The translations under genes were made by a program, and so were the position numbers. This document shows positions 25,687 to 42,007 of a DNA stretch of 64,000 bases, piece after piece. The DNA comes from Parapedobacter koreensis (GTDB lineage Bacteria; Bacteroidota; Bacteroidia; Sphingobacteriales; Sphingobacteriaceae), in NCBI RefSeq assembly GCF_900109365.1, contig NZ_FNZR01000003.1, forward strand, positions 496,001 through 560,000, in the 5' to 3' direction. Under the pieces are notes generated by a model. The model was given only the letters and a program-made list of their open reading frames with translations, ran no database searches and was not told the origin of the DNA. Position 1 is the stretch's first letter. The number at the start of each line of letters is the position of its first letter.

Positions 25687-25694
25687 ATATTTGC
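25687..25694 (+). promoter_or_regulatory. -7 element touching the Rpn gene start
   Basis: TATATTTG matches TAnnTTTG and lies only 3 nt before the ATG at 25697. If used, the mRNA would be leaderless or start inside the gene. Confidence 0.35.
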
Positions 25695-25696
25695 AC

Positions 25697-26578
25697 ATGA
25701 CCAAATCAAAACAACCTACCATTGGAAAATTCATCGATCCATTGACGGATTGGGGTTTTCGTCATCTTTTCGGACAGGAACCCAATAAGGAGATACTGAT
25801 AGAGTTTCTGAATGACCTGTTTCAGGGGGAGAAGCATATTGCTGAACTCGAATATGCTCCTAATGAACATGACGGAGATGATGGTACGGACAAACGCGTC
25901 ATTTTCGATTTGCATTGTCGTGGGGATAACGGCGAATACTTCATTGTGGAAATGCAGCGCATTCGGCAGGATTTCTTCAAGGACAGGGCGTTGTTCTATG
26001 TATCCCGGCTTATTCAGCGGCTATTGCAGAAGGGGCAGGAATCAAACGATTATGAACTGCCGGAGGTTTACCTTATTGGCATTTTGGAATTTAGTATGGA
26101 TGCAAATGAGCAAGATAGGTGCTTCCATGACATCGCATTGATGGAAAAAAACTCAGGAAAATTATTTTACAATAAGTTGGGTTTTAAGTTCTTGGAATTG
26201 CCTAATTTTGTAAGAAGTGGCGGCGATTTGCTTAACGACATGGACAAATGGATGTACCTGTTGAAGCACATGAGTACCCTGAAAAAAATTCCGACATTTT
26301 TGGATAAGCGGATTTTTCAGCTTATTTTTAAGATATCAGAAGTAGCAAAACTAAGAAAGGAGGAACGTATGGCATACGAAGCAAGTTTAAAGGCTAAGTG
26401 GGATACGCAGAATGCGTTTGAGTCGGTAAGACGAGATGGTATAAATGAAGGTAAGTCTGAAGTAGTGAGGAATTTACTCAATAACACCGATTTTCCCGTA
26501 GAGAAAATCGCATCCCTCGCCTCTGTTCCGGTTGAATTTGTTTTAAAGATTAAAGCGAAGCTGAAATATCGTGCGTAA
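25697..26578 (+). CDS. Rpn-family recombination-promoting nuclease (PD-(D/E)XK)
   Basis: This 293-aa protein is of the Rpn/'PD-(D/E)XK nuclease family transposase' group. It begins with FIDPLTDWGFRHLFGQEPNKE, the group's N-terminal signature. The nuclease core is visible as FDLHCRGDNGEYFIVEMQR (D, then E-x-Q). The C-terminus carries a NEGKSEVVRNLL tail. Relatives are DNases linked to recombination and, in some cases, phage defence. It stands alone between a perfect inverted repeat and an HTH gene. The ATG at 25697 was preferred to TTG at 25691. Confidence 0.85.
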   Translation: MTKSKQPTIGKFIDPLTDWGFRHLFGQEPNKEILIEFLNDLFQGEKHIAELEYAPNEHDGDDGTDKRVIFDLHCRGDNGEYFIVEMQRIRQDFFKDRALFYVSRLIQRLLQKGQESNDYELPEVYLIGILEFSMDANEQDRCFHDIALMEKNSGKLFYNKLGFKFLELPNFVRSGGDLLNDMDKWMYLLKHMSTLKKIPTFLDKRIFQLIFKISEVAKLRKEERMAYEASLKAKWDTQNAFESVRRDGINEGKSEVVRNLLNNTDFPVEKIASLASVPVEFVLKIKAKLKYRA

Positions 26579-27866: not shown

Positions 27867-30800
27867 ATGAAGCAAAAATTACGCTTAGGGGATAGCTATG
27901 CCCTTATACGATACATCAGCCTCTTGGCTATAACGATTACTATGTGTGCAGAAGCCCGCTCACAGCGCCCCGAGCCCTCGGGGCCTGTGCTGTCGGGCAT
28001 TGTGGTTGACACGGCTGGCCTGCCGATAGCAGGTGCCACCATTACCACCAAAGGCACGTCAGACAAAACAATCAGTGCCGCCAACGGTCGGTTTACTTTT
28101 TATTCAAAGGTGCCATCCGGCACGCTTATGGTGAGCTACCTCGGTCACCGAACCGCCGACGAGAAATTTGGTGAAGGGAATATCGGGCCATTTCACATTG
28201 TGCTTATCCCGAATGAAAATATGCTCGATGAGGTGGAGGTATCCACGGGCTACCAAAAGCTATCGCCGGAACGGTCTACGGGAAGCTTTGTACATGTCGA
28301 TAACGAATTGCTCAATCGAAGTTTTTCTTCGGATCTGTTGAGCAGATTGGAAGGCGTCACCAATGGGTTGCTTTTCAACCGATCGACATCGGGTACTCCG
28401 GTAGCATTGAGTGTCCGTGGGCCAAGTACTATCCACGCAGATGGTCAGCCGCTGATTATTCTGGACAATTTTGAATACAACGGCGACTTGCGAAACATCA
28501 ATCCGAACGACATAGCAAGTGTCACCGTGCTGAAAGATGCCGGTGCTTCCTCCATTTGGGGGGCAAAGGCGGGGAATGGGGTGATCGTAATCACGTCCAA
28601 AAACGGCAGGTACAACGCAGCCCCGAGGGTCACGGTCGGTACCAACGTCTCTACCACAGCAAAGCCCGATCTATTTAGCCAAATGCAGGTAAGCAGTGGC
28701 GATTTCATCGATTTAGAGTTATTCCTTTTCAATCGGGGTTATTACAACAACACGCTTACCAACAATAGTAAACCCGCTGTGTCACCGCTAGTATGGCTAT
28801 TGGCCCAAAGACGGGCAGGGCTGCTGTCTTCACAGGATTCGGCGGGTATGATAGATGCACTGCGGGGTTTGGATGTTAGAAACGATATTTCCAACTATTT
28901 GGACCGCACAGCTGTGGCACAGCAGTACACCGCTGCTATCAGCGGAGGAAGCCAACACCATAGCTACCATGCATCCGCAGGATGGGATAAGAACCTGACC
29001 AATAAGGTCGGCAATGGGTATGACAGGCTTACGCTGAATTTCAACAACACGTTTTTGTTGCTGCGCGATAAACTGGAAATCACCACAGGAGTAATCTATA
29101 CGCAGGCCAAAGATGAGGAAAACGATCCGTTCGTTCCGATCAGTTACCCATACGCGCAATTGGCGGACGCTGGCGGGCGCAGCTTGCCGATAGCCCGGTA
29201 TAACCAAGGGTTTCTGGACACGGTGGGCCAGGGCCGATTGCTGGATTGGACATATCGCCCGCTGGATGAATTGCGTCTCATGGACAATACGGTCAAAACA
29301 ACTGACCTGAAATTCAACGTGGCGACCCAATATCGGCTCACTTCGTTCCTGAAAGCCAGCCTGCGCTATCAGTACGGACGGGGTATATCCAATAGGAGGG
29401 ACCACCGAAGCCAGGCTTCTTTTTTTACGCGTGATCTGATCAACCAGTTTTCATCCATAGCGTCGAATGGCCAAGTGGCAAGGTCTGTCCCATTGGGCGG
29501 GATACTGGATTTGCGTTCAAACGAATACACCGCCCATCACCTACGGGGGCAATTGGATGTAGACAAGGCGTGGGGCATTCATTCCGTGAGCGGCATCATC
29601 GGCGGTGAGTTGAGCGACGTGGTCACACAATCGGCTGCCAATCGATTCTACGGCTACAACGAGGAGCGGGAGACGGTGGGTATCGTAGACCCCGTAAATT
29701 CATACACTAGCATGGTGACGGGGAGGTCAAACATCCGCATACCTGCTCCGCAGAATCTGGCTTACCTGACCGATAGGTTTGTGTCTTACTACGCGAATGC
29801 CAGCTATAGCTATGACAACCGCTATATCCTGTCTGCAAGCTTCCGTAGAGATGCGTCCAATCTTTTCGGGGTAGCTACTAACCAGAAATGGACGCCGCTG
29901 TGGTCTGCCGGGCTTGCTTGGAAAATCAGTGATGAGCGCTTCTATGGTGTGGATTGGCTGCCTTCCGTAAAGCTTCGTGCTACCTATGGCAAAAGCGGCA
30001 ATATAGACCGGAATGTGACGGCATTTCTCACGGCAATGGCTTTTCCCGTAAATGAATATGGCCAGCCAACGATGACCATCACCAACCCACCGAATCCCGA
30101 CCTCAAATGGGAAACCATCACAATGGTCAATACCGCCCTGGATTTTGCGCTTTTGAAATCCCATCGTGTCACCGGAAGCGTCGAATATTATTGGAAGATA
30201 GGCAAAGATTTAATGGGTGATGCCGAAATACCCTCTTCATCGGGCAGGAGCACATACCGTGGCAATACGGCAGCGATGGCTGGGCACGGATTGGATTTGA
30301 CGCTCAATACGCAAAACCTTATGGGCAAACTCAGGTGGCGTACGGATGCAATGTACAGCTATACGTGGAATAAAGTAACCGAGTACTTGGTAAAGCCAGT
30401 AAATTTGAATAGCTATATGGGTGGGGCCTTCTTGGAAGGCAAGCCGATCCGGTCTTTATTCGCTTATAGGTGGGCGGGGCTGGATCCTTCAAATGGCAAT
30501 CCGCGCGGGTATATCGGGGAGGATGTGTCAGCCGATTATTCTGCATTGGTCAATTCCACCGATTTGGGCGAACTGCTATTCGTGGGATCTGTTGTGCCAA
30601 CGCATTTTGGCAGTCTGCGCAATACGTTTGACTGGAAATCTTTTTCTTTTTCGTTCAATATTGTTTACAAATTCGGCTACTTCTTCAGGAGAAATTCACT
30701 CGACTACGCTTCGCTGTTTTCGGGTTCCTATCAGGGCAATCCGGATTTTGTGACGCGCTGGCAGCAGCCGGGGGATGAAGCCACCACTGATGTGCCGTCG

Positions 30801-31076
30801 CTGGTTTACCCAGCAAATACGATGCGTGACAATTTTTACCGGAATAGCGAAATACTTGCCATCAGCGGGAGCCATATCCGGTTGCAGGATGTACGGCTGG
30901 CATATCACATCGCCAATCGGCAAAATGGAAAATTGCCATTTGAAGGTATTCAGGTATTTGCGATGGCCAGCAATTTAGGCTTGCTATGGCGATCAAACAC
31001 GTACGGAATCGATCCCGATTCGCAGAATATTAGCCAATCCCACACCATTTCGGGAGGAATAAGGCTTGAATTTTAA
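27867..31076 (+). CDS. SusC/RagA-family TonB-linked outer-membrane transporter
   Basis: This is a 1069-aa TonB-dependent transporter with a signal peptide, an N-terminal carboxypeptidase-D-regulatory-like domain (SGIVVDTAGLPIAGATITTKG), a plug domain (near SVRGPSTIHADGQPLIILDNF and DIASVTVLKDAGASSIWGAK) and a C-terminal 22-strand barrel. The last residues GGIRLEF are typical. It pairs with the following SusD-like lipoprotein, whose start region overlaps its end by a few bases, and with a TlpA-like protein. No sigma/anti-sigma gene lies nearby. The nutrient is unknown; oligopeptides are as likely as glycans. Confidence 0.93.
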   Translation: MKQKLRLGDSYALIRYISLLAITITMCAEARSQRPEPSGPVLSGIVVDTAGLPIAGATITTKGTSDKTISAANGRFTFYSKVPSGTLMVSYLGHRTADEKFGEGNIGPFHIVLIPNENMLDEVEVSTGYQKLSPERSTGSFVHVDNELLNRSFSSDLLSRLEGVTNGLLFNRSTSGTPVALSVRGPSTIHADGQPLIILDNFEYNGDLRNINPNDIASVTVLKDAGASSIWGAKAGNGVIVITSKNGRYNAAPRVTVGTNVSTTAKPDLFSQMQVSSGDFIDLELFLFNRGYYNNTLTNNSKPAVSPLVWLLAQRRAGLLSSQDSAGMIDALRGLDVRNDISNYLDRTAVAQQYTAAISGGSQHHSYHASAGWDKNLTNKVGNGYDRLTLNFNNTFLLLRDKLEITTGVIYTQAKDEENDPFVPISYPYAQLADAGGRSLPIARYNQGFLDTVGQGRLLDWTYRPLDELRLMDNTVKTTDLKFNVATQYRLTSFLKASLRYQYGRGISNRRDHRSQASFFTRDLINQFSSIASNGQVARSVPLGGILDLRSNEYTAHHLRGQLDVDKAWGIHSVSGIIGGELSDVVTQSAANRFYGYNEERETVGIVDPVNSYTSMVTGRSNIRIPAPQNLAYLTDRFVSYYANASYSYDNRYILSASFRRDASNLFGVATNQKWTPLWSAGLAWKISDERFYGVDWLPSVKLRATYGKSGNIDRNVTAFLTAMAFPVNEYGQPTMTITNPPNPDLKWETITMVNTALDFALLKSHRVTGSVEYYWKIGKDLMGDAEIPSSSGRSTYRGNTAAMAGHGLDLTLNTQNLMGKLRWRTDAMYSYTWNKVTEYLVKPVNLNSYMGGAFLEGKPIRSLFAYRWAGLDPSNGNPRGYIGEDVSADYSALVNSTDLGELLFVGSVVPTHFGSLRNTFDWKSFSFSFNIVYKFGYFFRRNSLDYASLFSGSYQGNPDFVTRWQQPGDEATTDVPSLVYPANTMRDNFYRNSEILAISGSHIRLQDVRLAYHIANRQNGKLPFEGIQVFAMASNLGLLWRSNTYGIDPDSQNISQSHTISGGIRLEF

Positions 31077-31086
31077 TGATAGAAAA

Positions 31087-32475
31087 ATGATGAAAACAAC
31101 ATTAGTAATACGATACATCGCGGTCGTTTGTGTGGCTTTCACTGCCTCATGCAGCGACTATCTTGATGCCGTGCCCGACCGCTCACTGTCGGTATTGACC
31201 AAAATCAGCGAATACCAACAACTATTGGATAATGCGCAGATTTATATCAATGCGCCGGGCATTGCTGAAATAGGGACGGACGACCTCTACCTGACCAATG
31301 ATATGTGGCTGGCAACTTGGGTATTGCCGAGGAATGCATACGTATGGGCAGCTGATTTTTACGAGGGTAATACTGCGGTAGGCTATACGTCCGACTGGAC
31401 GTATCCATACGAAACCATTTACTACACCAATGTCGTGTTGGATGGATTGCGACGGCTGGAAGTAAGCAGCGCCGAATCGGACGAATACAATGAAGTGAAA
31501 GGACATGCCCTCTTTCTCAGGGCACTGCACCATTATTTTCTCCAGGAAATATTTGGACAGCCGTACCGTCCTGAATCGGCATCAGCTGATCTGGGAATCC
31601 CGCTTAAGCTGTCGTCTGAGCTATCCCAAACTCTTTATAGGGCTACGGTGCAGGAGACCTTTGGCCAAATCGTACGTGATTTGCAAGAAGCACTTGCCTT
31701 GCTGCCCGAAAACTACCAAACTGCAAATATGTTCCGTGCGTCGAAGGCGGCAACCCACGCATTATTAAGCCGGGTATACCTGACCCTGCAGGATTACGAA
31801 AAGTCGCTCGACCATGCCGACGCTTGCTTAGGCATGTACGATGTATTGCTTGACTTCAATGATTTAGCTCCGTCGTATAATCTGCCGTCACCGCATAATG
31901 CCGAGGTGTTGTTTAAGATAAGGCAGGTCGGACATTTGCCCGGATTGAATCCCATTATCGATCCGGGGCTTTATGCATCCTACAGTGATGACGACCTTCG
32001 CAAAAACACGTTCTTTCAACTACAAGAATCGTCCGGTACGCCAAGAATCAAGACCTTATATTCTGGAGGTACCACCCCGATGTCCGGACTCGCAACGGAC
32101 GAGGTGTACCTCAATAGCGCCGAATGCCGTGCGCGGATGGGCGATAGCGATGGCGCGATGCGGGATCTCAACAAGTTGCTTGAACATCGGTATGCCGCCG
32201 GGAGTTTCGACCCCGTTGCGGCCGTCTCTCCCGATGAGGTACTTCGCAAGGTACTGCTCGAACGTAGAAAAGAATTGGTCTTCCGAGGAACCCGGTGGAC
32301 GGACCTGCGCAGGTTGAACCAAGACCCTGCCTACGCCGTGACGTTGACAAGAACGCTGGACGGCACGGAATATCGACTGCCGCCCAATAGTTCCAACTAT
32401 ACCTATCCGATTCCCCTTAATGAGATTGTGATGAATGGTTTTCCTCAAAACGAACGCAATGAGACGTCTAATTAA
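31087..32475 (+). CDS. RagB/SusD-family surface lipoprotein
   Basis: This 462-aa substrate-binding lipoprotein forms the lid of the SusC channel. The signal peptide ends in a lipobox with Cys22 (AFTASCSDYL). TPR-like helices follow (ALHHYFLQEIFGQPY, ATHALLSRVYLTLQDYEKSL). The C-terminal VLLERRKELVFRGTRWTDLRRL is the family hallmark. The start at 31087 puts the signal peptide at the N-terminus; the frame is open back to 31066 inside susC. The next gene overlaps its end by 17 nt. Confidence 0.92.
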   Translation: MMKTTLVIRYIAVVCVAFTASCSDYLDAVPDRSLSVLTKISEYQQLLDNAQIYINAPGIAEIGTDDLYLTNDMWLATWVLPRNAYVWAADFYEGNTAVGYTSDWTYPYETIYYTNVVLDGLRRLEVSSAESDEYNEVKGHALFLRALHHYFLQEIFGQPYRPESASADLGIPLKLSSELSQTLYRATVQETFGQIVRDLQEALALLPENYQTANMFRASKAATHALLSRVYLTLQDYEKSLDHADACLGMYDVLLDFNDLAPSYNLPSPHNAEVLFKIRQVGHLPGLNPIIDPGLYASYSDDDLRKNTFFQLQESSGTPRIKTLYSGGTTPMSGLATDEVYLNSAECRARMGDSDGAMRDLNKLLEHRYAAGSFDPVAAVSPDEVLRKVLLERRKELVFRGTRWTDLRRLNQDPAYAVTLTRTLDGTEYRLPPNSSNYTYPIPLNEIVMNGFPQNERNETSN

Positions 32476-33946
32476 CAATAGGTTACATACTTGGATGCTG
32501 CTGTCTTTGGTCATCATCACCTGTCAGGCAATGGCATCAGAAAGCGTGCGTGAGCCGATAACCATTGAATTGAAATTTGCTGATAGTGCTTTTGGCAATG
32601 AACGGTTCGTGTTGAAATATTGGCATCAGCTTGTAGGTGTTTCTACTTCTTCTTTTGTGGTGCATGATGAAGTTGTAGGGGTCAGAACGGATGCAGGCAA
32701 TTTTCGGTTCAGGGTATATCCAAGCAGTGATCAGGGGTATTTTAGCCTGGGTAAAGAAAAGGATGGATATTTCGAGCACTTACTGTATCACTATCTGGTC
32801 GAATCAGGAGATAGCGTCCTCGTTGTAATGAATGAAAGCAACGCCTTCGATGAGGTCTACATACAGAAGCAATGGAGTACATATTATGATGGATTTCGGA
32901 ATTTCAAGTCTTATCGGCCATCTTTTTTTGGCAACGGGTCAGCAAAATACCAATGCAGATACAGTACCGATAGTTTGTCGTTGCGCTTGAGCGACGGCAA
33001 AGAAGATAAGAGCCGGGACGAGTCTTTAGCCATTCTCGCTGGATATGCGGATAAGATTGCACCGCATACTTATGAACGATTAAGGGCGGATATCGTGGGG
33101 AAAAATTTGCTGGAAAAATACCGGATGTTTAGTTGGGACGTTTTATCGCTGGCTAAAAAAAAGAATGGTTACGCAACCATAAAACAAATCCACGAAATGG
33201 GTTTCACCAAAAACAGTCAAGATAGCGCCTGGATAAACGTTGCCGTAAATTCGCCATTTTACTTGGAAAGCATGCTGGTGGGATTGCCCTACGCGATGAT
33301 TACGGATAGTATGCCGACCCCTGAACGGATGCTTAAACAAATAGACGGCGGGTATAGCGGTTTGATAAAAGATAGATTACTCTGCCTATTGCTACTGACG
33401 TACCGGGATAGATTTGAAAGCCAAGCCACGGTCTACCGTCAGATTCAGCGTGTGGTGAGGAATGAAGGGTTGCAGAAGATGTTGCATAGTTATTCACAAA
33501 AATTCCTTCAGGGCGCTCCGGCCTTCCCTTTTGAATTGGAAGATGCCGACGGCAAATTAATAAAGCTGGCGGACTTGGAAGGCAAATTGCTTTTGCTGGA
33601 TTTTTGGTTTACCGGCTGCTCCGGTTGCAGTCATTTTTTTATGGAAACATTGTCAACTATCGAAGAAGAGTTTCGGGGAGACAACCGCTTTGAAGTGATT
33701 TCGATTTCCATTGACCAGGACAGAAAACGGTGGCTTAACAGCGTCGATAGTAAACGTTATACATCGGAAGAAGCAATCAACGTGTATACGAATGGCGATG
33801 GCTCAGCTCATGAATTGATTAAATTTTACAACATCGAAAGTTATCCTACTATCGTCATCATTGACAATAAGGGAAGGTTGTATGGCATCTATCATCAAGG
33901 ACAGGTATCAAATGCCACAATTCGGGCGATGTTGGATCCCGTGTAA
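32459..33946 (+). CDS. TlpA-like thioredoxin-domain protein of the SusCD operon
   Basis: This 495-aa protein is exported (signal peptide about 1-26) and has a long N-terminal region of unknown fold and a C-terminal TlpA/AhpC-type thioredoxin domain (about 355-495). The redox motif is C387-S-G-C390, within LLDFWFTGCSGCSHFFMET, and a cis-proline region (ESYPTIVIID) follows. Such proteins often follow SusCD in Sphingobacteria and probably handle disulfides at the cell surface or in the periplasm. The start at 32459 overlaps the susD-like stop, suggesting coupling. Confidence 0.82.
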   Translation: MRRLINNRLHTWMLLSLVIITCQAMASESVREPITIELKFADSAFGNERFVLKYWHQLVGVSTSSFVVHDEVVGVRTDAGNFRFRVYPSSDQGYFSLGKEKDGYFEHLLYHYLVESGDSVLVVMNESNAFDEVYIQKQWSTYYDGFRNFKSYRPSFFGNGSAKYQCRYSTDSLSLRLSDGKEDKSRDESLAILAGYADKIAPHTYERLRADIVGKNLLEKYRMFSWDVLSLAKKKNGYATIKQIHEMGFTKNSQDSAWINVAVNSPFYLESMLVGLPYAMITDSMPTPERMLKQIDGGYSGLIKDRLLCLLLLTYRDRFESQATVYRQIQRVVRNEGLQKMLHSYSQKFLQGAPAFPFELEDADGKLIKLADLEGKLLLLDFWFTGCSGCSHFFMETLSTIEEEFRGDNRFEVISISIDQDRKRWLNSVDSKRYTSEEAINVYTNGDGSAHELIKFYNIESYPTIVIIDNKGRLYGIYHQGQVSNATIRAMLDPV

Positions 33947-34029: not shown

Positions 34030-34356
34030 CTACCTGGCGGGAGGCGTGTAAGGCCCGAGGCCACTCGTGGTTGCGTTTTCTTTGAGCACAAACAACTCGC
34101 CTCCTTCTTCAATGATGTCGTCTGAATCAAACGTAGCGGTGCAGGGCGGTGCGGTCGGGTTGCCGCCGCAGCTATGCCCTGTTTCTGCTTCATCATTTGA
34201 CAACCGCCACCTTCCATTCGCTTGGTCATCCTGCTCAATGGGATAAGTGACCATCACCTTGCTTTTTTGCTTTGGGGTAAAGGCGTAGGTCAGGAAAGCA
34301 ATCGTTAATACACCAACCAACGCAAATAGGTTCCATTTTTTTAATAACTTAACCAT
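34030..34356 (-). CDS. DUF6520-type small secreted peptide, last gene of the HTTM operon
   Basis: This 108-aa protein has a signal-like N-terminal helix (LFALVGVLTIAFLTYAFTP). The short mature part holds two cysteines about 9 residues apart (HSCGGNPTAPPCTATFD) and an acidic stretch. It resembles the DUF6520 family of small Bacteroidota exported proteins. It overlaps the upstream 86-aa gene by 16 nt, so it is part of the tightly coupled operon. A cysteine-bearing secreted peptide at the end of an HTTM operon makes it a candidate product or substrate of that system. Confidence 0.6.
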   Translation of the reverse strand: MVKLLKKWNLFALVGVLTIAFLTYAFTPKQKSKVMVTYPIEQDDQANGRWRLSNDEAETGHSCGGNPTAPPCTATFDSDDIIEEGGELFVLKENATTSGLGPYTPPAR

Positions 34357-34601
34357 AATCGTGTTTGATTTCTGGAAGCAAGCGCTTCCTGGTTTTCCTC
34401 CGTTCGGACCTGGGGGTCATATCCTACTTGGAACGTTTTCTTTTTTTCTAATGGCAGGGGAGACCCTTGGCCCTGCATGATGATGGTATCCTGTTTTCTA
34501 TTTACTAGTTGTGTTTTGCACAAAAATAGGCCATCATTGGGCTCGTAAATGGAGCATATCCGAACCAACGATGTAATGGAAAACCGAATAGGAGGGGTCA
34601 T
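34341..34601 (-). CDS. 86-aa hypothetical protein, coupled to the AraC gene
   Basis: This is a small soluble protein beginning MTPPIRFSITSLVRICSIYE. It is not recognised. It is supported by position rather than homology: its ATG overlaps the AraC stop as ATGA (34598-34601), and its end overlaps the start of the DUF6520 gene by 16 nt. That is the same tight style as the rest of the operon. The three cysteines are not in a known motif. Confidence 0.45.
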   Translation of the reverse strand: MTPPIRFSITSLVRICSIYEPNDGLFLCKTQLVNRKQDTIIMQGQGSPLPLEKKKTFQVGYDPQVRTEENQEALASRNQTRLWLSY

Positions 34602-35590
34602 AAAGCCTTGGTCTCGCGCGGATAGCATTTGAAAAACTTTTTGTACTGTTTATTGAAATCGTGCAGCGCGCTGAAACCGACGGCATACGCTACTTGAGTG
34701 TACGTGTACCTGCCTGTAAGAATCAAATCCCGGGCGTGCCGCAATCGTATTGCCATGATGAATGCTTGGGGAGAGGTGCCATAATACCGACGGTGTATCC
34801 GTAGCAGGTACGACTCCGAGACGCCGCTGCGCTCTACGACTTCGTCCACCCGAGGGATGGAGCCTTTCTTGATTTCATTGATGATATATGCTCGTACGTT
34901 ATGCAACAAGTTAAGCGTCTTTGTACTGCCTTGCGGCTGCTCGCGTAGCGCATCCATGCAGCAATCGATCAGCGCGGCCACCGCTTCATAAAGCCGGAGA
35001 TCCATCGTGAGCGGCCGAAGGAGGGGAAGCCGAAGCAATTTTTGCCAAAGGATGCGTGGAACATGGCCAAAGGGCAGGACGCGGGTAGGATAGGGGCTTG
35101 GGCCTTGGCTTTTTAGTTGGAGAAGGAGGGGGCGGATAGGGATAAATGCCGCGTCGCTGATATAGCGCAGGAGCATCCGCTTATTGGTGGTCCAAAGGTA
35201 TATGATGGTGATACCGCGGGGCACAGATACCATGTATACACCGCGGGGTGCGTATATGAGTGTGTACGTTTCGGCGTGCAGCGAAAGTGCAGTGACATCG
35301 TCGTCCTGCTCGCGGAGGGTAAATCGACCTTCGCTCACGTAGCATCCATGCAAGTCAGCATGGGTGCATGTGATGGGAAATGACAGGGGGAGATGAGCAT
35401 GGATTTCATGCACGGCGATGAACATATCCTTGGCATCGTGAAAGCTATATGCAAGATCAAACGCTTCACCTGAAAGGTAATGCCGATCATGCGCACAACG
35501 CAGCGTTGCAGAAGGCACAAAAGGGGGCTCGGCAGTAGTGGCGGTGGCCGGGTATGCATGCCGGATATGGTACCTGACCGGTTCATGCAT
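34598..35590 (-). CDS. AraC-family transcriptional regulator
   Basis: This 330-aa regulator has a C-terminal AraC/XylS double helix-turn-helix (about 230-325), with RVDEVVERSGVSESYLLRIH and YTQVAYAVGFSALHDFNKQY. The N-terminal ligand domain is poorly conserved and rich in His and Tyr. It is encoded inside the HTTM operon, with its start (35590) overlapping the HTTM stop by 8 nt, so it probably feeds back on this locus. A longer start at 35638 would run deep into the HTTM gene and is less likely. Confidence 0.82.
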   Translation of the reverse strand: MHEPVRYHIRHAYPATATTAEPPFVPSATLRCAHDRHYLSGEAFDLAYSFHDAKDMFIAVHEIHAHLPLSFPITCTHADLHGCYVSEGRFTLREQDDDVTALSLHAETYTLIYAPRGVYMVSVPRGITIIYLWTTNKRMLLRYISDAAFIPIRPLLLQLKSQGPSPYPTRVLPFGHVPRILWQKLLRLPLLRPLTMDLRLYEAVAALIDCCMDALREQPQGSTKTLNLLHNVRAYIINEIKKGSIPRVDEVVERSGVSESYLLRIHRRYYGTSPQAFIMAIRLRHARDLILTGRYTYTQVAYAVGFSALHDFNKQYKKFFKCYPRETKAL

Positions 35591-36497
35591 CTGCACTTTG
35601 GTTTGTATCCGCGTGATCTGCCGGGGCAGGGGTTTCACGGCCTGAGGCAGATACGCGGAGGGGTTTGACCATAGGAGATGTACTGGTTTGCTGATTGTTC
35701 ACAGGAAGATAGGGGTAGTGGAAAGCCACCACGTTGAGCAGTATCATCAACGCAGAGAAGAAATGTAAGCCCATCGCCAATGCGATGCCGGTATGGAGCG
35801 CCACAGTGGCCCACAGGCACAGCCTGCGGGTACGGGGTAGCCAAATGAGTACGGGGTAGCAGAGTTCCAATAGTACCACCAGCCAACCGGCCGCCACCCA
35901 CCAGGGAGTAGGAATACCTTTGGCCAGTTCGGTGGCAATGACGGGCAGATAACCCGGCTGCATGATGGCTTTCCACAACGCTTCGCCCGTCCACCAGGTA
36001 GTGCCGAAGGCCTTGTTGATGCCGGCAACGGCGTATACTACGCAGAGATGCAGTTGGATTGTCCGCAAGAGCAGGCTATGCCATGGGATTAGGGTTCTCT
36101 CCGATGGGGCAATCGCGGCATAAAACAGGGCACTGCAAGCGAGGTAGTCAAACCCGTAGCTGAATAGCGGATTGCTTAGAAATGTCAGTTGATGAAGGAG
36201 CAGGAGCAGCACCACCGCGATACGTGGGTAAAAACCGATGATAACCGCAACACAGAGCAGTATATAAGCCAGGGGTGCTACATCTTGCGATCCCGACCCG
36301 AGTGGCAATAGCGCCTTGCCTTGTTTCAACGCCAGCAACGGTGCATCCACGAAACGGTCTGCACCGTAAAGTATGGCAAAATCAGGCCATAATAATAGTT
36401 GTGCAGCAAGCAGGAGCGCACTTATTCCAATACGCAATATCGGTACCCAATGGTGCGATCCGGAAAAGCCAAATAAGAAACGATCAGGGTGCGTCAT
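35583..36497 (-). CDS. HTTM-domain (SdpB/gamma-carboxylase-like) membrane protein
   Basis: This 304-aa inner-membrane protein has about eight TM helices. The stretch IQLHLCVVYAVAGINKAFG followed by WWTGEALWKAI is the core of the HTTM family, which includes vitamin-K-dependent gamma-carboxylase relatives and SdpB of the Bacillus sporulation-delaying peptide system. Its ATG overlaps the stop of the upstream 201-aa gene as ATGA. With a single-pass partner upstream and small secreted proteins at both ends of the operon, a role in peptide maturation is plausible but not proven. Confidence 0.72.
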   Translation of the reverse strand: MTHPDRFLFGFSGSHHWVPILRIGISALLLAAQLLLWPDFAILYGADRFVDAPLLALKQGKALLPLGSGSQDVAPLAYILLCVAVIIGFYPRIAVVLLLLLHQLTFLSNPLFSYGFDYLACSALFYAAIAPSERTLIPWHSLLLRTIQLHLCVVYAVAGINKAFGTTWWTGEALWKAIMQPGYLPVIATELAKGIPTPWWVAAGWLVVLLELCYPVLIWLPRTRRLCLWATVALHTGIALAMGLHFFSALMILLNVVAFHYPYLPVNNQQTSTSPMVKPLRVSASGRETPAPADHADTNQSADA

Positions 36498-37099
36498 GGC
36501 AGCGGTGCTTTCCGTATGGTATCGGTGAGCAGCGTGTATAGCGAAAGGAGCGGCTCATTAGATGACGCACCCAACGACCGTATGGCATACGCGCTGACCC
36601 GTAGGGTACGCGTATGGCAACAGGTATCTGGAAGGAGTGTGGACGCCATGTTTCGAGCCACGGCCCGGGCAAAACGTTTGTCGGGGTGGTCGTCCGGTGT
36701 ATTGGGGAGCAGCTCTTGGAAAAGCTCCAAGAAATTTTGGTAACGGAGGTAACCTTCCACACCGGAAATCGGTGGATGATATACCATGCTGCGTTCGCCA
36801 CCGTCACTATCTGCACAGGCTACTTCATAGCGGTAAAAGCTGCCTACCTGCGGAGCGAAGAAAGTATAGCCGGTGTTCAATCCGGTGAGGCGGGCATATT
36901 TATGGATAGTTGGATAAAGGGCTACCTGCCTCGTGGCTTGCAAAAGGGGGGCAGCCCACCGGCTATCGCCATTGGTAGCTACACCCCGATACCACCCCTC
37001 AAGCGATGCCCATGCATTATACACACCCATCACGCTAAGATGAAAGGCAATACAAAGGATGTAAATCCGCTGGTACCAACCAAGATGTCTACTCACCAT
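36494..37099 (-). CDS. Single-pass membrane protein, SdpA-like partner of the HTTM protein
   Basis: This 201-aa protein has one N-terminal TM helix (about 10-30, YQRIYILCIAFHLSVMGVY) and an extracytoplasmic domain with NTGYTFFAPQVGSFYRYEVA. The Y-x-FF-x-P pattern is common in small partners of HTTM proteins and recalls SdpA, but overall similarity cannot be judged here. Cysteines at CADSD and CCHTR could form a disulfide. It overlaps the upstream small gene by 11 nt and the HTTM gene by 4 nt. Confidence 0.55.
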   Translation of the reverse strand: MVSRHLGWYQRIYILCIAFHLSVMGVYNAWASLEGWYRGVATNGDSRWAAPLLQATRQVALYPTIHKYARLTGLNTGYTFFAPQVGSFYRYEVACADSDGGERSMVYHPPISGVEGYLRYQNFLELFQELLPNTPDDHPDKRFARAVARNMASTLLPDTCCHTRTLRVSAYAIRSLGASSNEPLLSLYTLLTDTIRKAPLP

Positions 37100-37322
37100 A
37101 CCGGCTCAGGATTTGTTGGTACTCGATGAACGTCGTTTCCTCGGGCAATGGCCCCCACGCAATACGGCGATCAAAGATGCGCTTAGGTTCTTTGGGTTTG
37201 TCTTCATCGGCTACGGATGATCTGGTTGCTACGTAAGGCATTGCGGGTGCCCCGGCCATGACAGCTGCAGACACCAATAAAACAACCAGCACGATGGGCA
37301 GAAATAATGCAGTCTTTTTCAT
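37089..37322 (-). CDS. 77-aa exported protein, first gene of the HTTM operon
   Basis: This is a small protein with a clear signal sequence (MKKTALFLPIVLVVLLVSAA, likely cleaved after AGA). The mature part is short and charged: DEDKPKEPKRIFDRRIAWG, then EETTFIEYQQILSRYGE. The start at 37322 was chosen for the signal peptide over an in-frame ATG at 37379. It could be the precursor handled by the HTTM pair or an immunity-like small membrane protein. Not recognised. Confidence 0.55.
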   Translation of the reverse strand: MKKTALFLPIVLVVLLVSAAVMAGAPAMPYVATRSSVADEDKPKEPKRIFDRRIAWGPLPEETTFIEYQQILSRYGE

Positions 37323-37493
37323 TTTACTATGTGTTGATAGTCTGCTAAAATTGGCCAATGCCATCCGGCTGGGCAACAAGCTCGTGACATAGGATATACT
37401 TCACTGGAAATTTGGCAGGATTTGCTTGACATGCATTTTACGGTATTAGGAAAATTGGTATCTTTAGCCGTCATTCAACAACCCATTCTGCCC

Positions 37494-38228
37494 ATGATTT
37501 ACCGTGCTATCGCTATCGATGACGAACGTTTTGCGCTTGACGACCTCAGGCTTGCACTCAACTATGTGCCCAATGTGACGCTCGTCGCCACATTCCTTAC
37601 CTTCGAAGAAGCTCTGGCGTTTTTATGTGTTGATGGGCCAATGGATATCATTTTCTGCGATCTGGATCTGGATGGCACCGGCAATGTGGATGCCTTGCGT
37701 GGCATTGCAGTGGCCCGGGAACTCAAGGCTTGGTGTACCTTATTTTATTTCTTTACCGGCCATCCGGAATACCGCATCCCTGCTATCGATACGTCTGCGG
37801 CTGGGCATTTGCTCAAGCCGGTAGATCCGGCAAAAATCATGGATGGGGTGGCCTGGTTGGAGCGCATCCGCTTTCGGCAGCCTGCTTTGCCGAAGCAGTT
37901 GCTTGTGCGCGAAAGGGGATCCGGCGTACTGCGATTCGTCGATATGGAAGACATCTGTTGCCTATGTACGCATATCCACGAAAAAAACTACGTGGAGGTA
38001 ATCTGCCATTCGGGGGCACAAATCGTCACGCTTGCCAGCTTGAAAGCTATGCATGCCCGGGTGGCACCTTCCGGCCTGTTCATCCAGCTCAACCAAGGGG
38101 CTGTAGTCGCCAAACAGGCAATCGTATCGGAGTCTGAAGGCATCGTCCTGCTGGCCTCAGGCCATCGGTTTGCTGTCGGAAAGAGTCACGCCAAAGCGTT
38201 TGCCCATTACCTCAGGCAGCTTTCATGA
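37494..38228 (+). CDS. LytTR-family response regulator
   Basis: This 244-aa protein has an N-terminal receiver domain with acidic pocket DD (9-10) and phospho-acceptor D56 (FCDLDLDG). A C-terminal LytTR DNA-binding domain follows (about 140-244, EDICCLCTHIHEKNYVEVI). It is divergent from the HTTM operon, with 171 nt between the starts, and overlaps the following kinase gene as ATGA. The pair probably reads an external signal, perhaps the peptide made next door. The start at 37494 places the receiver domain at the N-terminus. Confidence 0.88.
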   Translation: MIYRAIAIDDERFALDDLRLALNYVPNVTLVATFLTFEEALAFLCVDGPMDIIFCDLDLDGTGNVDALRGIAVARELKAWCTLFYFFTGHPEYRIPAIDTSAAGHLLKPVDPAKIMDGVAWLERIRFRQPALPKQLLVRERGSGVLRFVDMEDICCLCTHIHEKNYVEVICHSGAQIVTLASLKAMHARVAPSGLFIQLNQGAVVAKQAIVSESEGIVLLASGHRFAVGKSHAKAFAHYLRQLS

Positions 38229-39349
38229 GCAGCATGCATAAACGTATACGCATTTGGTGCAAGCGACTCAAGCGACGGCATCCCCTGCCCTGGTGGGGGC
38301 ATGTATGCTTCGTCGCAGCCTATGTGCCGGGGTACCTGTTTTTTCTTGAGCTGGATGAAATGGCAGCGCCAGACGCAACATCAAAGCTGGTCATCGCCGC
38401 GTTGCAATTGTTTTTTTTCTACACGGCTATTCTATTGCTGTTACCTCTGGCTTTCCGGTATCGTCGTGGGCCTATGGCCACGGCGGCATGGATGATGATT
38501 TACCTGGTACTGGATTTTCTGGTAGTGGCTGTTTTTCTTTTTGCAATTAGCGTGGGTTCGGGCGCCATTCAGCTTTATTGGGACGAAGGAGGTGACTGGC
38601 TGTATGACGTCATCAACTTTCCGGCAGTGGCTGTGGCCACCTGCTACCTCGCTGGACTGGCCAGCGTGATCTATCAACTGATCGCTCAGGGCCTGATCTT
38701 CTACCATCATCGGGCTAACCTGACGGTGCTTGTAGACCGCAAGCAGGCGGCCATTCGTGCGTTGGAATTGGAGTGGCGTCGTCTACAGTTGGATCCCCAT
38801 CTGATGGCGGGGTTGCTGTCTCGCATCCGGCTCATGGCTCATCGAGATCCTATGTACACCTGGAAGGCGCTGAATAAGACCATCGCCATCATGCAATACT
38901 ATTGTTCCATTTCGCCCGCTACGCCGGTCATCCCGCTGGCAGAGGAAGTGAAGCAAGTGAGGAATTTCCTCGCCATGGAAACGCTGGGGCATCCAGATAG
39001 TTACTTCCGGTTGCAGGTGGCCGACGAGGCATTGCCCTGCACCATCATCCCCATGCTGTTGCTTATGCTCGTAAAAAACCAGATCAAACACGGTGTATTA
39101 CATGATCGCCAAACACCTGCTGTGCTGTGCGTATCCACCTGCCACGGGGGCAATTGCCTACACATCATTACACTTAACGGTATCAATCGCAGCCCACGCA
39201 CGGAATTTCAAGACACCGGGATAGGACAGAAAAACATCAGATACCGATTGGCGCACTACTATCCCGGTCGCTACATTTTCCGCAGCGGCGAAGATGCTGA
39301 TGGGCGCTACCGCGTGGAAATCTGCATCGGGGCTGGTGAACAAACGTAA
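38225..39349 (+). CDS. LytS/YehU-type sensor histidine kinase
   Basis: This 374-aa membrane kinase has about four TM helices (25-155), a short coiled linker and a His_kinase domain. The phosphate-accepting box reads LQLDPHLMAGLLSRI (H192), a divergent form of the usual QINPHFLFN. The ATP-binding half is better conserved (LLLMLVKNQIKHGV, DTGIGQKNIRYRL). It is translationally coupled to the LytTR regulator. The signal is unknown; the adjacent HTTM operon is the obvious candidate target. Confidence 0.85.
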   Translation: MSSMHKRIRIWCKRLKRRHPLPWWGHVCFVAAYVPGYLFFLELDEMAAPDATSKLVIAALQLFFFYTAILLLLPLAFRYRRGPMATAAWMMIYLVLDFLVVAVFLFAISVGSGAIQLYWDEGGDWLYDVINFPAVAVATCYLAGLASVIYQLIAQGLIFYHHRANLTVLVDRKQAAIRALELEWRRLQLDPHLMAGLLSRIRLMAHRDPMYTWKALNKTIAIMQYYCSISPATPVIPLAEEVKQVRNFLAMETLGHPDSYFRLQVADEALPCTIIPMLLLMLVKNQIKHGVLHDRQTPAVLCVSTCHGGNCLHIITLNGINRSPRTEFQDTGIGQKNIRYRLAHYYPGRYIFRSGEDADGRYRVEICIGAGEQT

Positions 39350-39516
39350 TTTTTAATTAAGTTTGAGGTAACGATTGTTTAACATTCGCCATCCACGTGG
39401 CATACGGCGGTTGGCGGGTTGCAATATACTGGTCTGATTGGCTCAATTTGGAGATAGCATCCCTCACCGCGTTGCTGGGTTTCTGTCATGCCGATGGCGC
39501 TTCAACCCAAAGTGCC

Positions 39517-39801
39517 ATGATTCTACAATTTTTATCTCGTATTATCGAACTATTCAGCGAAGCCGTGGAGCTGCTTCGCGAGATTGCGGGCTTTCTTCGC
39601 CAAAACCACCAATCCGAACCCGTGACACCGGAGTTACTCCGTGATGCCAAGTATGCAGCTGAACGCATTGGCGTGGTGGATAGAACGTTGCGCCGCCTCA
39701 CCAGAAAGGGCATGCTGCCCATACATTCCTATGTCAACCGTAGACGCCGGTTCCGTGAGAACGATATCGAGCGCTGCCGCAGGTTTTACCGTGGGGAATA
39801 G
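39517..39801 (+). CDS. Helix-turn-helix protein (MerR/excisionase-like)
   Basis: This is a 94-aa protein. The N-terminal amphipathic helix (LQFLSRIIELFSEAVELLRE) is followed by a DNA-binding part, AAERIGVVDRTLRRLTRKGM, and a basic end with RRRRFRENDIERCRRFYRG. The pattern is that of excisionase/MerR-type HTH proteins common in Bacteroidota mobile elements. It stands alone at the left edge of the DUF6266 cassette. The frame is open further upstream, but the ATG at 39517 gives a compact domain. Confidence 0.65.
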   Translation: MILQFLSRIIELFSEAVELLREIAGFLRQNHQSEPVTPELLRDAKYAAERIGVVDRTLRRLTRKGMLPIHSYVNRRRRFRENDIERCRRFYRGE

Positions 39802-39809
39802 GCTCCGCA

Positions 39810-39935
39810 TTGGCTTCGGAGCTTCCACCATCCCTGCGCATGGCTTGCGACTGGAAGCCCTGGCTCTCGTAGCCACTGAGGTGCTGCAAGGGTAGGGCGA
39901 GGGTGCAGTAAATCCCGGCGGAGCTCCGAAGCCAA
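39810..39935. repeat. 14-bp inverted repeat in the gap before the DUF6266 genes
   Basis: TTGGCTTCGGAGCT (39810-39823) and AGCTCCGAAGCCAA (39922-39935) are exact complements 98 nt apart. They occupy the left third of a 361-nt gene-free stretch and could be ends of a small element or an RNA stem. Confidence 0.6.
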
Positions 39936-39981
39936 CCCCAAGCCGTCTCTGGGCTAACCCCGTTACATACTCTTGTCGTAG

Positions 39982-40031
39982 ACGGACAGCAAACGGACAC
40001 TTAACGGACAATTTCCGGCTTTGGGCGGACA
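39982..40031 (+). promoter_or_regulatory. Phased CGGACA repeats upstream of the DUF6266 promoter
   Basis: ACGGACA occurs at 39982, 39993 and 40004 with an exact 11-nt period. A fourth CGGACA lies at 40026, 21 nt after the third. One-turn spacing about 50-100 nt before a -7 element (TATGTTTG, 40081-40088) fits an activator binding array. Confidence 0.5.
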
Positions 40032-40080
40032 GTTGCCGGACTATCGCATCCCCGCAGCAGTTTTTTCTTTTTCAGTGGTT

Positions 40081-40088
40081 TATGTTTG
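40081..40088 (+). promoter_or_regulatory. -7 element of the DUF6266 operon
   Basis: TATGTTTG matches TAnnTTTG. The downstream leader holds a hairpin (CTGTC-TCCG-GACAG, with flanking GC pairs), then the ATG at 40163. Confidence 0.45.
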
Positions 40089-40162
40089 TCTCCGTCGTCG
40101 TTAGGCTGTCTCCGGACAGGACGGCGGCGAATGAATAATAAATCATTAAAAAAGAAAACAAT

Positions 40163-40801
40163 ATGGCAAAGTTTATAAACGGTGCGATAGGCACCTTTTC
40201 AGGAAAAGTAGGGAGTATCATCGGCAGTAGCTGGCGCAGTGTCCCTTATATGCGCGGGCTGAGCAAGAAGCGCACGAAGCCTTTTACCGAGGCGCAATTG
40301 GCCCAGCAGCAGCGGTTTGGTTTGATGGGGCAGTTCCTGCTGCCGCTGAAAGGCCTGCTGGAAATCGGACTTGCGAACCTGGACGACTCCACGGCGACGC
40401 TCTTCAACCAGGCGATGGCGCTCAATCTTCCGGCCGTCACGGGCACTTATCCCGATTTCGGTATTGACTACGCGGGGATACAGTTCAGCAAAGGCGGTCT
40501 GGAACCGCTCCGCGGTGTGACGATCACCCACGAGGGGGAAACAGCCACGGTGTCCTGGAATCCGGTGGCCAACCGCTTCAGCGGCAATGGGGATGACGAG
40601 GTATATGTGCTGTTGTATGACCGCGAGTTGAACCTGTTTTATACCTCTGATGAGATAGCCGCACGTTCTGCCGGGCAGGCAGACATTCCGCTGGATGCGG
40701 ATACTGCTGGCCACATGGCCGATACCTGGCTGTTTGCTGTGGCACGTGATGGCAGTCGTGTATCCAACACCGTATACGGGGGATCGCTCATGCTTGGCTA
40801 A
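40163..40801 (+). CDS. DUF6266-family protein, copy 1
   Basis: This 212-aa protein has the family N-terminus (MAKFINGAIGTFSGKVGSII, then WRSVPYMRGLSKKRTKPF), a helical part with QQRFGLMGQFLLPLKGLLEIG, and a C-terminal beta domain resembling an Ig or fibronectin fold (VTITHEGETATVSWNPV). There is no signal peptide. The function of DUF6266 is unknown to me; genes often occur in tandem in accessory regions. A paralogue follows 65 nt later, separated by a tRNA T-arm mimic. Confidence 0.8.
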   Translation: MAKFINGAIGTFSGKVGSIIGSSWRSVPYMRGLSKKRTKPFTEAQLAQQQRFGLMGQFLLPLKGLLEIGLANLDDSTATLFNQAMALNLPAVTGTYPDFGIDYAGIQFSKGGLEPLRGVTITHEGETATVSWNPVANRFSGNGDDEVYVLLYDRELNLFYTSDEIAARSAGQADIPLDADTAGHMADTWLFAVARDGSRVSNTVYGGSLMLG

Positions 40802-40822
40802 CGGGTAATGGTTGTATAATCC

Positions 40823-40850
40823 GGGCCGGGGGTTCGAATCCCCCGGCCCA
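40823..40850 (+). repeat. tRNA T-arm-like perfect hairpin between the DUF6266 genes
   Basis: GGGCCGGGGG (40823-40832) and CCCCCGGCCC (40840-40849) form a 10-bp perfect stem around TTCGAAT, an authentic T-loop sequence, followed by A. The 3' part reads like a tRNA T-arm plus acceptor end, but no 5' acceptor, D-arm or valid anticodon arm is found upstream, so it is not a complete tRNA. Confidence 0.7.
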
Positions 40851-40866
40851 TTTAAAACAGGCACTT

Positions 40867-41499
40867 ATGGCAAAAATGATTGATTTATTTACGTTTTCGG
40901 GTAGGCTGGGGGATATGGTGGGCTGCATGGGTCCCTCGGGATTTTATGTGCGGAGCCGGCCACGAAAATCCACAAAACCCCCGACGATCCGCCAGTTGGA
41001 AACGCGGGCGCGGATGGCGTTGGTAGCGAAATTTCTGAATCCGATCCGTGAACTTATCTCTCTGGGCTTTGCTTCCCAGCAGGATCGCAGGTCTAAGGCG
41101 GGGGCTTTCGGAAGGGCTACGGCACATGCCCTACGGAAGGCAGTGGCGGGCACGTATCCCGACCTATCCATCGATCCGGGGGAGGTGCTGCTGAGCAGGG
41201 GCGGTTTGGCGGGATTGGGCAAACCGGCCCTTGCTGTGGCAGAGCCATCGCTGACCGTCACGTGGGTACCGTATACGGATCGGATGCGCGCTTTTGCGGA
41301 CGATACGGTCTATGCTGTGGCCTACCATGCAGATGCCGGTGCACTGGCTACCGGTATAGCCACCCGCGGTAGCGGTACAGTGAACATCGACATTTCAGGC
41401 GAGCGAGCGGGAAGTGAATTGCTGGTGTATGTCTGTGTGGCCGAACGTGACCATCGGGAGTTTTCCAACAGTCAGTTCCTGGGTATAGCCTACACTTGA
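40867..41499 (+). CDS. DUF6266-family protein, copy 2
   Basis: This 210-aa paralogue of the preceding gene shares the N-terminal FSGRLGDMVGCMGPSGFYVR region, then RQLETRARMALVAKFLNPIR, AGTYPDLSIDPGEVLLSRGG and the C-terminal beta domain (LTVTWVPYTD). Divergence between copies is high outside the motifs, so the duplication is old. The second copy has a cysteine in the N-terminal glycine loop. Function unknown. It probably shares a transcript with copy 1 and DUF5675. Confidence 0.78.
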   Translation: MAKMIDLFTFSGRLGDMVGCMGPSGFYVRSRPRKSTKPPTIRQLETRARMALVAKFLNPIRELISLGFASQQDRRSKAGAFGRATAHALRKAVAGTYPDLSIDPGEVLLSRGGLAGLGKPALAVAEPSLTVTWVPYTDRMRAFADDTVYAVAYHADAGALATGIATRGSGTVNIDISGERAGSELLVYVCVAERDHREFSNSQFLGIAYT

Positions 41500-41530
41500 A
41501 ACAAAAATTAAAAAGAATAAAAAAACAATA

Positions 41531-42007
41531 ATGAACGAGATAAAGATTATCCGCGTGGCGCAGGGAAAAAACAGTACCCTCAGCCACCTCTATATCGGAG
41601 GCCTCTTCGCCTGCTACTTGCTGGAAGACAGCGTACGTAAGGAGAAGATACAGGGACTTACTTGCATCCCTGAGGGGGAATACCTTCTGTCGCTCAATTC
41701 CTGGGCGGGGATGAATGCCAAGTACGCTCCGAAGTACCCGAAGCTTCATCAGGGCATGATAGAAATCACTGAAATACCCAATTACCAGTTGGTCTTCATC
41801 CACATTGGCAACTACCATACGCAGACAGCGGGTTGTCCGCTCACCGGGTCGTACTGGCAGTTGCTGGATGGCGATTATCAGGTGATGCACTCTACGGCTG
41901 CTTATAAGTATGTGTACCCGCTATTAGTGGGGGAGATCGGGAAGGGGAATAATAGGATTGAGGTTTTAAACCAGTGCTCCACGTCTGGATCTCCGTCGCT
42001 TCGCTAG
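41531..42007 (+). CDS. DUF5675-family protein with a YkuD-like H...GC motif
   Basis: This 158-aa protein has the DUF5675 look: LEDSVRKEKIQGLTCIPEGEY in the middle, then FIHIGNYHTQTAGCPLTG. In that segment H91, H96 and G101-C102 resemble the catalytic histidine and S/T-x-GC cysteine of L,D-transpeptidases, which suggests a cysteine-type peptidoglycan enzyme; this is inference. The natural end seems to be near NRIEVL. The last residues are encoded by the left arm of an 80-nt palindrome. It is the third gene of the DUF6266 cassette. Confidence 0.7.
   Translation: MNEIKIIRVAQGKNSTLSHLYIGGLFACYLLEDSVRKEKIQGLTCIPEGEYLLSLNSWAGMNAKYAPKYPKLHQGMIEITEIPNYQLVFIHIGNYHTQTAGCPLTGSYWQLLDGDYQVMHSTAAYKYVYPLLVGEIGKGNNRIEVLNQCSTSGSPSLR

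What the first reader, a model, noticed from the sequence alone, without database searches (positions are those of the whole stretch)
34030..39349. Translationally coupled HTTM/SdpAB-like operon with small secreted proteins, divergent from a LytTR two-component system
Seen: six minus-strand genes overlap one another (11, 4, 8, 4 and 16 nt). In order they encode an exported 77-aa protein, a single-pass protein, an HTTM membrane protein, an AraC regulator, an 86-aa protein and a DUF6520-type secreted peptide with two cysteines. A LytTR regulator and kinase, coupled as ATGA, point away. Known: SdpB is an HTTM protein that with SdpA matures a secreted peptide in Bacillus, and LytTR systems often respond to peptides. 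Inference: this is a peptide production and sensing system not described for this phylum.
Basis: partly seen in the sequence, partly recalled or inferred. Interest (0 to 1): 0.72.

Follow-up and report, generated by a model that had tools for sequence, protein, structure and literature searches.

The report
Carboxylase-like peptide-maturation gene cassette
A Bacteroidota bacterium carries a compact gene set, conserved in relatives, in which a membrane protein built like the vitamin K enzyme of human blood clotting sits beside a small exported protein that it probably modifies or processes, apparently by chemistry other than the human enzyme's carboxylation.

Summary
The 11, 4 and 8 nt overlaps of the exported 77-aa protein (A77), the 201-aa protein (B201), the HTTM protein and AraC are real. 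The 86-aa 'gene' scores as non-coding and is not conserved, so the last small gene is probably a separate unit. The core A77-B201-HTTM recurs across Bacteroidota (Sphingobacteriaceae, Chitinophaga, Hymenobacter, Chryseobacterium, Saprospiraceae). A divergent LytTR/kinase pair, a downstream AraC or Crp gene and a convergent SusC/SusD are added in most Sphingobacteriaceae copies. HTTM has the fold of vitamin K-dependent gamma-carboxylase (Z 17) and is homologous to SdpB. The catalytic Lys218 and two quinone-pocket residues are invariant (71/71), but the carboxylase Glu-binding Asn-His pair is absent (46/46 non-carboxylase members). B201 matches no known family, including SdpA and DUF5819, but fills their place; in one Chitinophaga it is fused behind HTTM in carboxylase order. 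A77-type proteins mostly share a C-terminal [VIL][LM]x[KRN]Y tag (22/32; shuffled 0.2%). Best explanation: an Sdp-like, split-carboxylase-like machine that matures an exported, C-terminally tagged peptide. Substrate role, reaction and product function are inferred. New variant of a known kind.

The parts
37089..37322 (-). A77: 77-aa Sec-exported small protein, putative substrate, with C-terminal tag ILSRY(GE)
   Evidence: single copy in genome; coding score 0.21
36494..37099 (-). B201: one N-terminal TM helix plus a predicted periplasmic beta-beta-alpha-alpha-beta-beta domain with GYxFFAPxVxS motif; positional counterpart of SdpA and DUF5819
35583..36497 (-). HTTM membrane protein with the gamma-carboxylase transmembrane fold; K162, W168, F247 retained, YGxD in place of the Asn-His region
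34598..35590 (-). AraC-family regulator, translationally coupled to HTTM; replaced by a Crp-type gene in some relatives
34341..34601 (-). 86-aa ORF, probably not a gene (intergenic or promoter region)
34030..34356 (-). 108-aa small exported Cys-containing protein, probably a separate unit; DUF6520 assignment not confirmed
37491..38228 (+). LytTR-type response regulator (divergent domain), divergently transcribed
38225..39349 (+). His_kinase (LytS-like) sensor, coupled to the regulator as ATGA
27867..33946 (+). SusC (27867-31076), SusD (31090-32475) and TlpA-like thioredoxin (32435-33946), convergent neighbours; SusD recurs beside the cassette in relatives
   Evidence: TlpA-like; SusC/SusD: homologous pair recurs beside the cassette in relatives, family named by reading
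39397..42007 (+). HTH_17/excisionase-like protein, two DUF6266 proteins, DUF5675 protein; recurrent neighbours of unknown role

Best explanation
A77, B201 and HTTM form a peptide-maturation unit that works like SdpC-SdpA-SdpB and is built like a split vitamin K-dependent gamma-carboxylase. A77 is exported by Sec (signal peptide read from sequence). HTTM holds a quinone site with the catalytic lysine equivalent to Lys218 of human GGCX (residue and fold shown by alignment and model comparison; quinone binding inferred). B201, anchored by one helix, supplies the periplasmic substrate-binding part that in GGCX is the C-terminal half of one chain (inferred from order, topology and a natural fusion; not shown by sequence). 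The pair recognises A77, probably by its C-terminal [VIL][LM]x[KRN]Y tag (inferred), and modifies or processes it. Because the Asn-His pair that holds glutamate in GGCX is missing, the reaction is probably not gamma-carboxylation (inferred). In Sphingobacteriaceae the product is likely tied to the divergent LytTR pair, the AraC/Crp regulator and the SusC/SusD outer-membrane system, as signal or transported cargo (weakest step).
For: Core order in more than 30 loci of several Bacteroidota orders. HTTM fold: GGCX chains are the only strong matches, Z 15.4-17.2 over 215-240 residues for 15 entries, next unrelated row 8.3 (Foldseek E 6e-5). HTTM against bacterial full-length carboxylases E 2e-13, against SdpB E 1e-14, against DUF5819-paired HTTM E 2e-26. 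K162, W168, H235 and F247 invariant in 71/71; N-H only in the 25 carboxylases. Function of GGCX K218, W223, F299, N159 and H160: PMC12589487. Natural fusion HTTM-B201 in carboxylase order in Chitinophaga rhizophila, with two tagged small proteins beside it; reverse-order fusion in L065. A77 tag in 22/32 against 0.2% of shuffles and about 2% of random short ORFs. Same order in actinobacterial sdp loci and in small protein-DUF5819-HTTM loci. SdpA and SdpB are needed to process SdpC (PMC6818787). Conserved divergent regulator and convergent SusD.
Against: No experiment. B201 has no significant profile match to SdpA, DUF5819 or the carboxylase lumenal domain; its score against the last lies within the range of shuffled profiles, and its model is only moderate with no PDB match. 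Ten of 32 upstream small proteins lack the strict tag, mostly in Sphingobacterium, and three loci (two Pedobacter, one Parapedobacter luteus) show no A77. The upstream set was picked by position and eye and its members are related, so 22/32 is not 32 independent trials. HTTM also has weak matches to redox proteins (MauE, DoxX).
Confidence: 0.6

Rival explanations
1. An antimicrobial peptide system in the strict Sdp sense: A77 is the pre-toxin, matured by B201-HTTM to kill competitors or siblings.
For: SdpB homology and C-A-B gene order; patchy distribution, 13 of 200 other family genomes and 3 of 295 other phylum genomes, as expected of competition systems; very diverse A77 bodies.
Against: A77 shows no C-terminal hydrophobic toxin segment of the SdpC kind by reading; no SdpI immunity protein anywhere in the genome; the constant partners are two regulators and SusC/SusD rather than immunity genes.
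Confidence: 0.17
2. A true quinone-dependent glutamate carboxylase making Gla residues in A77.
For: GGCX fold and conserved Lys218 equivalent; acidic residues in many A77 proteins.
Against: The Glu-binding Asn-His pair is replaced in 46/46 members of the three partner-dependent groups; no conserved Glu cluster in A77.
Confidence: 0.07
3. A membrane redox helper (MauE/DoxX-like) serving the neighbouring TlpA, MauE and small Cys-containing proteins of the SusC/SusD module; A77 is a small subunit, not a substrate.
For: Weak MauE and DoxX matches of HTTM; MauE and TlpA genes nearby in several loci.
Against: The A77-B201-HTTM core occurs without SusD or MauE detected nearby in Chitinophaga, Hymenobacter and Saprospiraceae; A77 has no cysteine; the fold match is to GGCX, far above others.
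Confidence: 0.1
4. Fortuitous neighbours with no joint function.
For: None beyond the lack of experiments; distribution is patchy.
Against: Recurrent order in many genera, overlapping starts and stops, and B201-HTTM gene fusions in two lineages.
Confidence: 0.03

Closest known systems
SdpA/SdpB/SdpC of Bacillus and Actinobacteria (TIGR04034/PF17418, TIGR04033)
   Same: Exported precursor, single-TM partner and HTTM protein in one coupled set; HTTM homologous to SdpB; same gene order as actinobacterial copies; aromatic-x-F-F motif after the TM in both partners.
   Different: B201 does not match SdpA models; HTTM lies far below the SdpB cut-off; A77 is unlike SdpC in size and lacks its hydrophobic domain; no SdpI; regulators and SusC/SusD instead.
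DUF5819-HTTM pairs (PF19136) with small exported protein and DCC1 protein, Bacillota and Actinomycetota
   Same: Same architecture; HTTM proteins homologous, E 2e-26.
   Different: DUF5819 shows no significant profile match to B201; function also undescribed.
Vitamin K-dependent gamma-carboxylase (human GGCX; bacterial VKGC)
   Same: Transmembrane fold, Lys218, Trp223 and Phe299 equivalents; B201 could be the equivalent of its C-terminal half, as the Chitinophaga fusion suggests.
   Different: Split into two genes; Glu-binding Asn159-His160 absent; no PF22777 lumenal domain.
HTTM proteins of linaridin peptide clusters (e.g. CrdG of corynaridin, PMC9927463)
   Same: An HTTM protein assigned to maturation of a gene-encoded peptide.
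   Different: An alpha/beta hydrolase is encoded beside it there; not compared by sequence here.

Membership tests
SdpA (TIGR04034 / PF17418) | profile match of the partner protein | tested here: not met
   No match at E up to 10 in any of 16 B201 members; hhalign with 7 SdpA sequences not significant. Positive control: PF17418 recognises real SdpA at E 1e-18 to 1e-39.
SdpB family (TIGR04033) | profile match above curated cut-off | tested here: not met
   All 15 members match (best E 2e-10), but the window protein scores 29.6 against a cut-off of 178.4 bits. Homology itself is met: hhalign E 1e-14.
Sdp system | exported precursor encoded beside SdpA-like and SdpB-like genes | tested here: inconclusive
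   A small exported protein directly precedes B201-HTTM in the window and most relatives, but that it is a precursor, and that B201 is SdpA-like beyond position and topology, is inferred.
Sdp system | SdpI-type immunity gene | tested here: not met
   PF13630 absent from the whole genome.
Sdp system | partner-dependent processing of the precursor to a secreted peptide | not testable with these tools
   Needs mutants and mass spectrometry.
DUF5819 (PF19136) | profile match of the partner protein | tested here: not met
   No match at E up to 10; real DUF5819 proteins match at E 2e-19 or better.
Vitamin K-dependent gamma-carboxylase | HTTM transmembrane fold | tested here: met
   VIA Z 17.2, rmsd 3.5 over 234 residues; hhalign E 2e-13 to bacterial VKGC.
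Vitamin K-dependent gamma-carboxylase | catalytic base Lys218 | tested here: met
   K162, 34/34 in the family.
Vitamin K-dependent gamma-carboxylase | Glu-binding Asn159-His160 | tested here: not met
   Y-G-x-D in 34/34; N-H in 25/25 carboxylases.
Vitamin K-dependent gamma-carboxylase | lumenal domain PF22777 | tested here: not met
   No match in HTTM, B201 or elsewhere in the genome. Fold equivalence of B201 is untested.
LytTR two-component system | receiver plus LytTR domain, adjacent histidine kinase | tested here: met
   Receiver and kinase detected in the window; LytTR detected in the 59% identical orthologue and other relatives, not in the window protein itself.
DUF6520 (108-aa protein) | profile match | tested here: not met
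   No Pfam or NCBIfam match at E up to 10.

The most novel reading that the evidence does not exclude
Three groups of bacterial systems (SdpAB, DUF5819-HTTM and this B201-HTTM family) are split, partner-dependent relatives of vitamin K-dependent carboxylase. They use menaquinol-derived base chemistry, with an acidic site in place of the glutamate pocket, to carry out a non-carboxylating change on small exported peptides; in Sphingobacteriaceae the peptide bears a C-terminal recognition tag and feeds a LytTR and SusC/SusD circuit.
Probability: 0.3. Interest if true: 0.82.

Novelty: new variant of a known kind. Interest (0 to 1): 0.6.

Why it matters
How SdpA and SdpB turn SdpC into a toxin, and what the many bacterial HTTM proteins do, is not explained in the papers found here. 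This family ties SdpB-type proteins to the solved fold and catalytic lysine of GGCX, shows which carboxylase residues are lost, and offers a defined candidate substrate tag. That makes the chemistry directly testable with a three-gene set and two point mutants.

Tried and rejected
Direct SdpA homology of B201: profiles, profile-profile comparison, and comparison after fetching true SdpA sequences all failed. B201 as a sequence homologue of the carboxylase lumenal domain: a colinear full-length alignment can be drawn, but its score is within the shuffled decoys, so it is not claimed. A TIGR04034 hit in L034 (E 5e-4) was not pursued: no convincing SdpA-like protein among the long ORFs there. PDB searches with the B201 model gave nothing above background. 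The sequence search of solved structures with the HTTM profile found nothing; the fold search did. Viral contigs gave no HTTM relative. DUF5831, MTS_N and SigI matches were taken as chance. No further A77-like protein was found elsewhere in the genome. Papers on HTTM or SdpB in Bacteroidota: none recognised in the searches of the held open-access library.
Full report
WHAT IS THERE. Four minus-strand genes are coupled: an exported 77-aa protein (A77), a 201-aa protein with one N-terminal membrane helix (B201), an HTTM membrane protein and an AraC regulator. The fifth ORF (86 aa) is probably not a gene: its codon score is that of non-coding DNA, its G+C is 43% while the flanking genes have 50-54%, it matches nothing, and no relative was seen to have it. 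A -7-like box lies inside it (weak, since such boxes are expected about once per 5 kb by chance). The 108-aa exported protein is therefore best seen as a separate unit; it does not match DUF6520 models. Divergently lie a response regulator and a His_kinase sensor joined by ATGA. Downstream, convergent, are SusC, SusD and a TlpA-like protein (TlpA; SusC and SusD named by reading). The window's genus is Parapedobacter: the same-genus genome G003 holds contigs of 20,251 and 24,428 bases that match Parapedobacter soli contigs.

CONSERVATION. Relatives of B201 were found in 13 of 200 other genomes of the family and 3 of 295 other genomes sampled over the phylum: patchy and accessory. A scan of named genomes with the HTTM family gave 32 loci from Parapedobacter, Sphingobacterium, Olivibacter, Pedobacter, Chitinophaga, Chryseobacterium, Hymenobacter, Saprospiraceae and others. 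B201 directly precedes HTTM in nearly all. In Sphingobacteriaceae the receiver gene lies immediately upstream on the opposite strand in nearly all loci (exceptions: L023, where it is downstream; two Pedobacter loci, where it is on the same strand; and L032, which lies on a 5.9-kb contig). An AraC or, alternatively, a Crp-type gene follows HTTM in most, and a convergent SusD lies within 6 kb in most. In most loci outside the Sphingobacteriaceae the A77-type protein, B201 and HTTM stand without these neighbours, so those three are the core and the rest are lineage-specific attachments.

A77. The gene before B201 encodes a small exported protein in most loci. The bodies differ greatly, but 22 of 32 end in [VIL][LM]x[KRNTES]Y within eight residues of the C terminus. 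Shuffled versions do so in 0.2% of cases and arbitrary short ORFs of the same loci in about 2%. The sequences are related and were collected by position, so this is a conserved feature, not a probability. Two tagged proteins stand in tandem in Chitinophaga rhizophila. Many members also share a [TV][KR]xF[FI]-like patch upstream of the tag (seen by eye), including some that lack the tag.

HTTM. AlphaFold with 15 homologues gives a good membrane core. In the PDB, vitamin K-dependent gamma-carboxylase stands alone: Z 15.4-17.2 over 215-240 residues for 15 entries, next unrelated row 8.3. Profile comparison supports homology to bacterial full-length carboxylases (E 2e-13), to SdpB (E 1e-14) and to the HTTM proteins paired with DUF5819 (E 2e-26). 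In a joint alignment of 71 proteins, K162 (Lys218 of GGCX, the base that deprotonates vitamin K hydroquinone), W168 (Trp223) and F247 (Phe299; both line the naphthoquinone pocket) are invariant. The Asn159-His160 pair that holds the substrate glutamate is invariant in the 25 carboxylases and absent from all 46 others, which have Y-G-x-D or mostly D-G-G-D there. GGCX residue functions are from PMC12589487. Residue equivalences rest on alignment; the N-to-K, K-to-W and F-to-F spacings in a bacterial carboxylase agree within one residue with the human numbering. So the quinone side is kept and the glutamate side is not.

B201. No Pfam, NCBIfam, PHROG or PDB relative worth the name. Conserved are a His in the membrane helix, a GYxFFAPxVxS motif after it, and an Arg. 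SdpA has PQxWxFFT and DUF5819 has QxWxxFAPxP at the corresponding place, but profile comparisons are not significant, so common descent is not claimed. What does speak for an equivalent role is order, topology and fusion: in Chitinophaga rhizophila one 521-aa chain carries HTTM followed by B201 (B201 model 144 bits), the same order as membrane part and lumenal part in GGCX; in L065 the two are fused the other way round.

RELATION TO KNOWN SYSTEMS. Plasmids of Rhodococcus, Streptomyces and Tsukamurella carry precursor or hypothetical protein, SdpA and SdpB in that order, matching A77, B201 and HTTM. Plasmids of Macrococcus and Streptomyces carry a small protein, DUF5819, HTTM and DCC1. SdpA and SdpB are required to process SdpC to the SDP toxin (PMC6818787). 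An HTTM protein is also part of linaridin clusters (PMC9927463). The window system works like these but fails the SdpA, SdpB cut-off, DUF5819, SdpI and carboxylase Glu-pocket tests, so it is filed as a new variant, not as a member.

MECHANISM. Shown: gene order, export signal by reading, conserved C-terminal tag, fold, conserved lysine and quinone-pocket residues, loss of the glutamate pocket. Inferred: that A77 is the substrate, that B201 holds it, that a quinol drives the reaction, that the product is a signal or cargo for the LytTR pair and SusC/SusD. The toxin reading is possible but lacks an SdpI-type immunity gene. Confidence that A77 is the substrate of B201-HTTM is about 0.6; that the reaction is gamma-carboxylation, below 0.1.

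Noticed in passing
window 39397-42007: An excisionase-like HTH protein, two DUF6266 proteins and a DUF5675 protein lie just beyond the kinase. DUF6266 recurs at a similar distance beyond the kinase in L018, L020, L021, L024, L025, L028 and L033: an unexplained conserved association.
   Followed up: partly
L023:3000-9100 (Parapedobacter luteus): The cassette there sits beside short peptides with GG-type leaders and a C39-VKOR-thioredoxin protein, a vitamin K epoxide reductase relative next to a carboxylase-fold protein.
   Followed up: no
L061:3836-8518 (Chitinophaga rhizophila): Two tandem tagged small exported proteins, an OMP_b-brl_3 outer-membrane barrel and an HTTM-B201 fusion in one strand-wise row; a compact version of the system.
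   Followed up: partly
L129:3842-4372 (Flammeovirga pectinis plasmid): Canonical SdpA (PF17418, E 1e-18) in a Bacteroidota plasmid.
   Followed up: no
L114, L116, L121: Plasmid loci in Bacillota and Actinomycetota with an uncharacterised small exported protein, DUF5819, HTTM and a DCC1/DUF393 protein: probably a widespread undescribed peptide system.
   Followed up: partly
window 25691-26578: PDDEXK_2 nuclease-family transposase upstream of the SusC/SusD genes.
   Followed up: no
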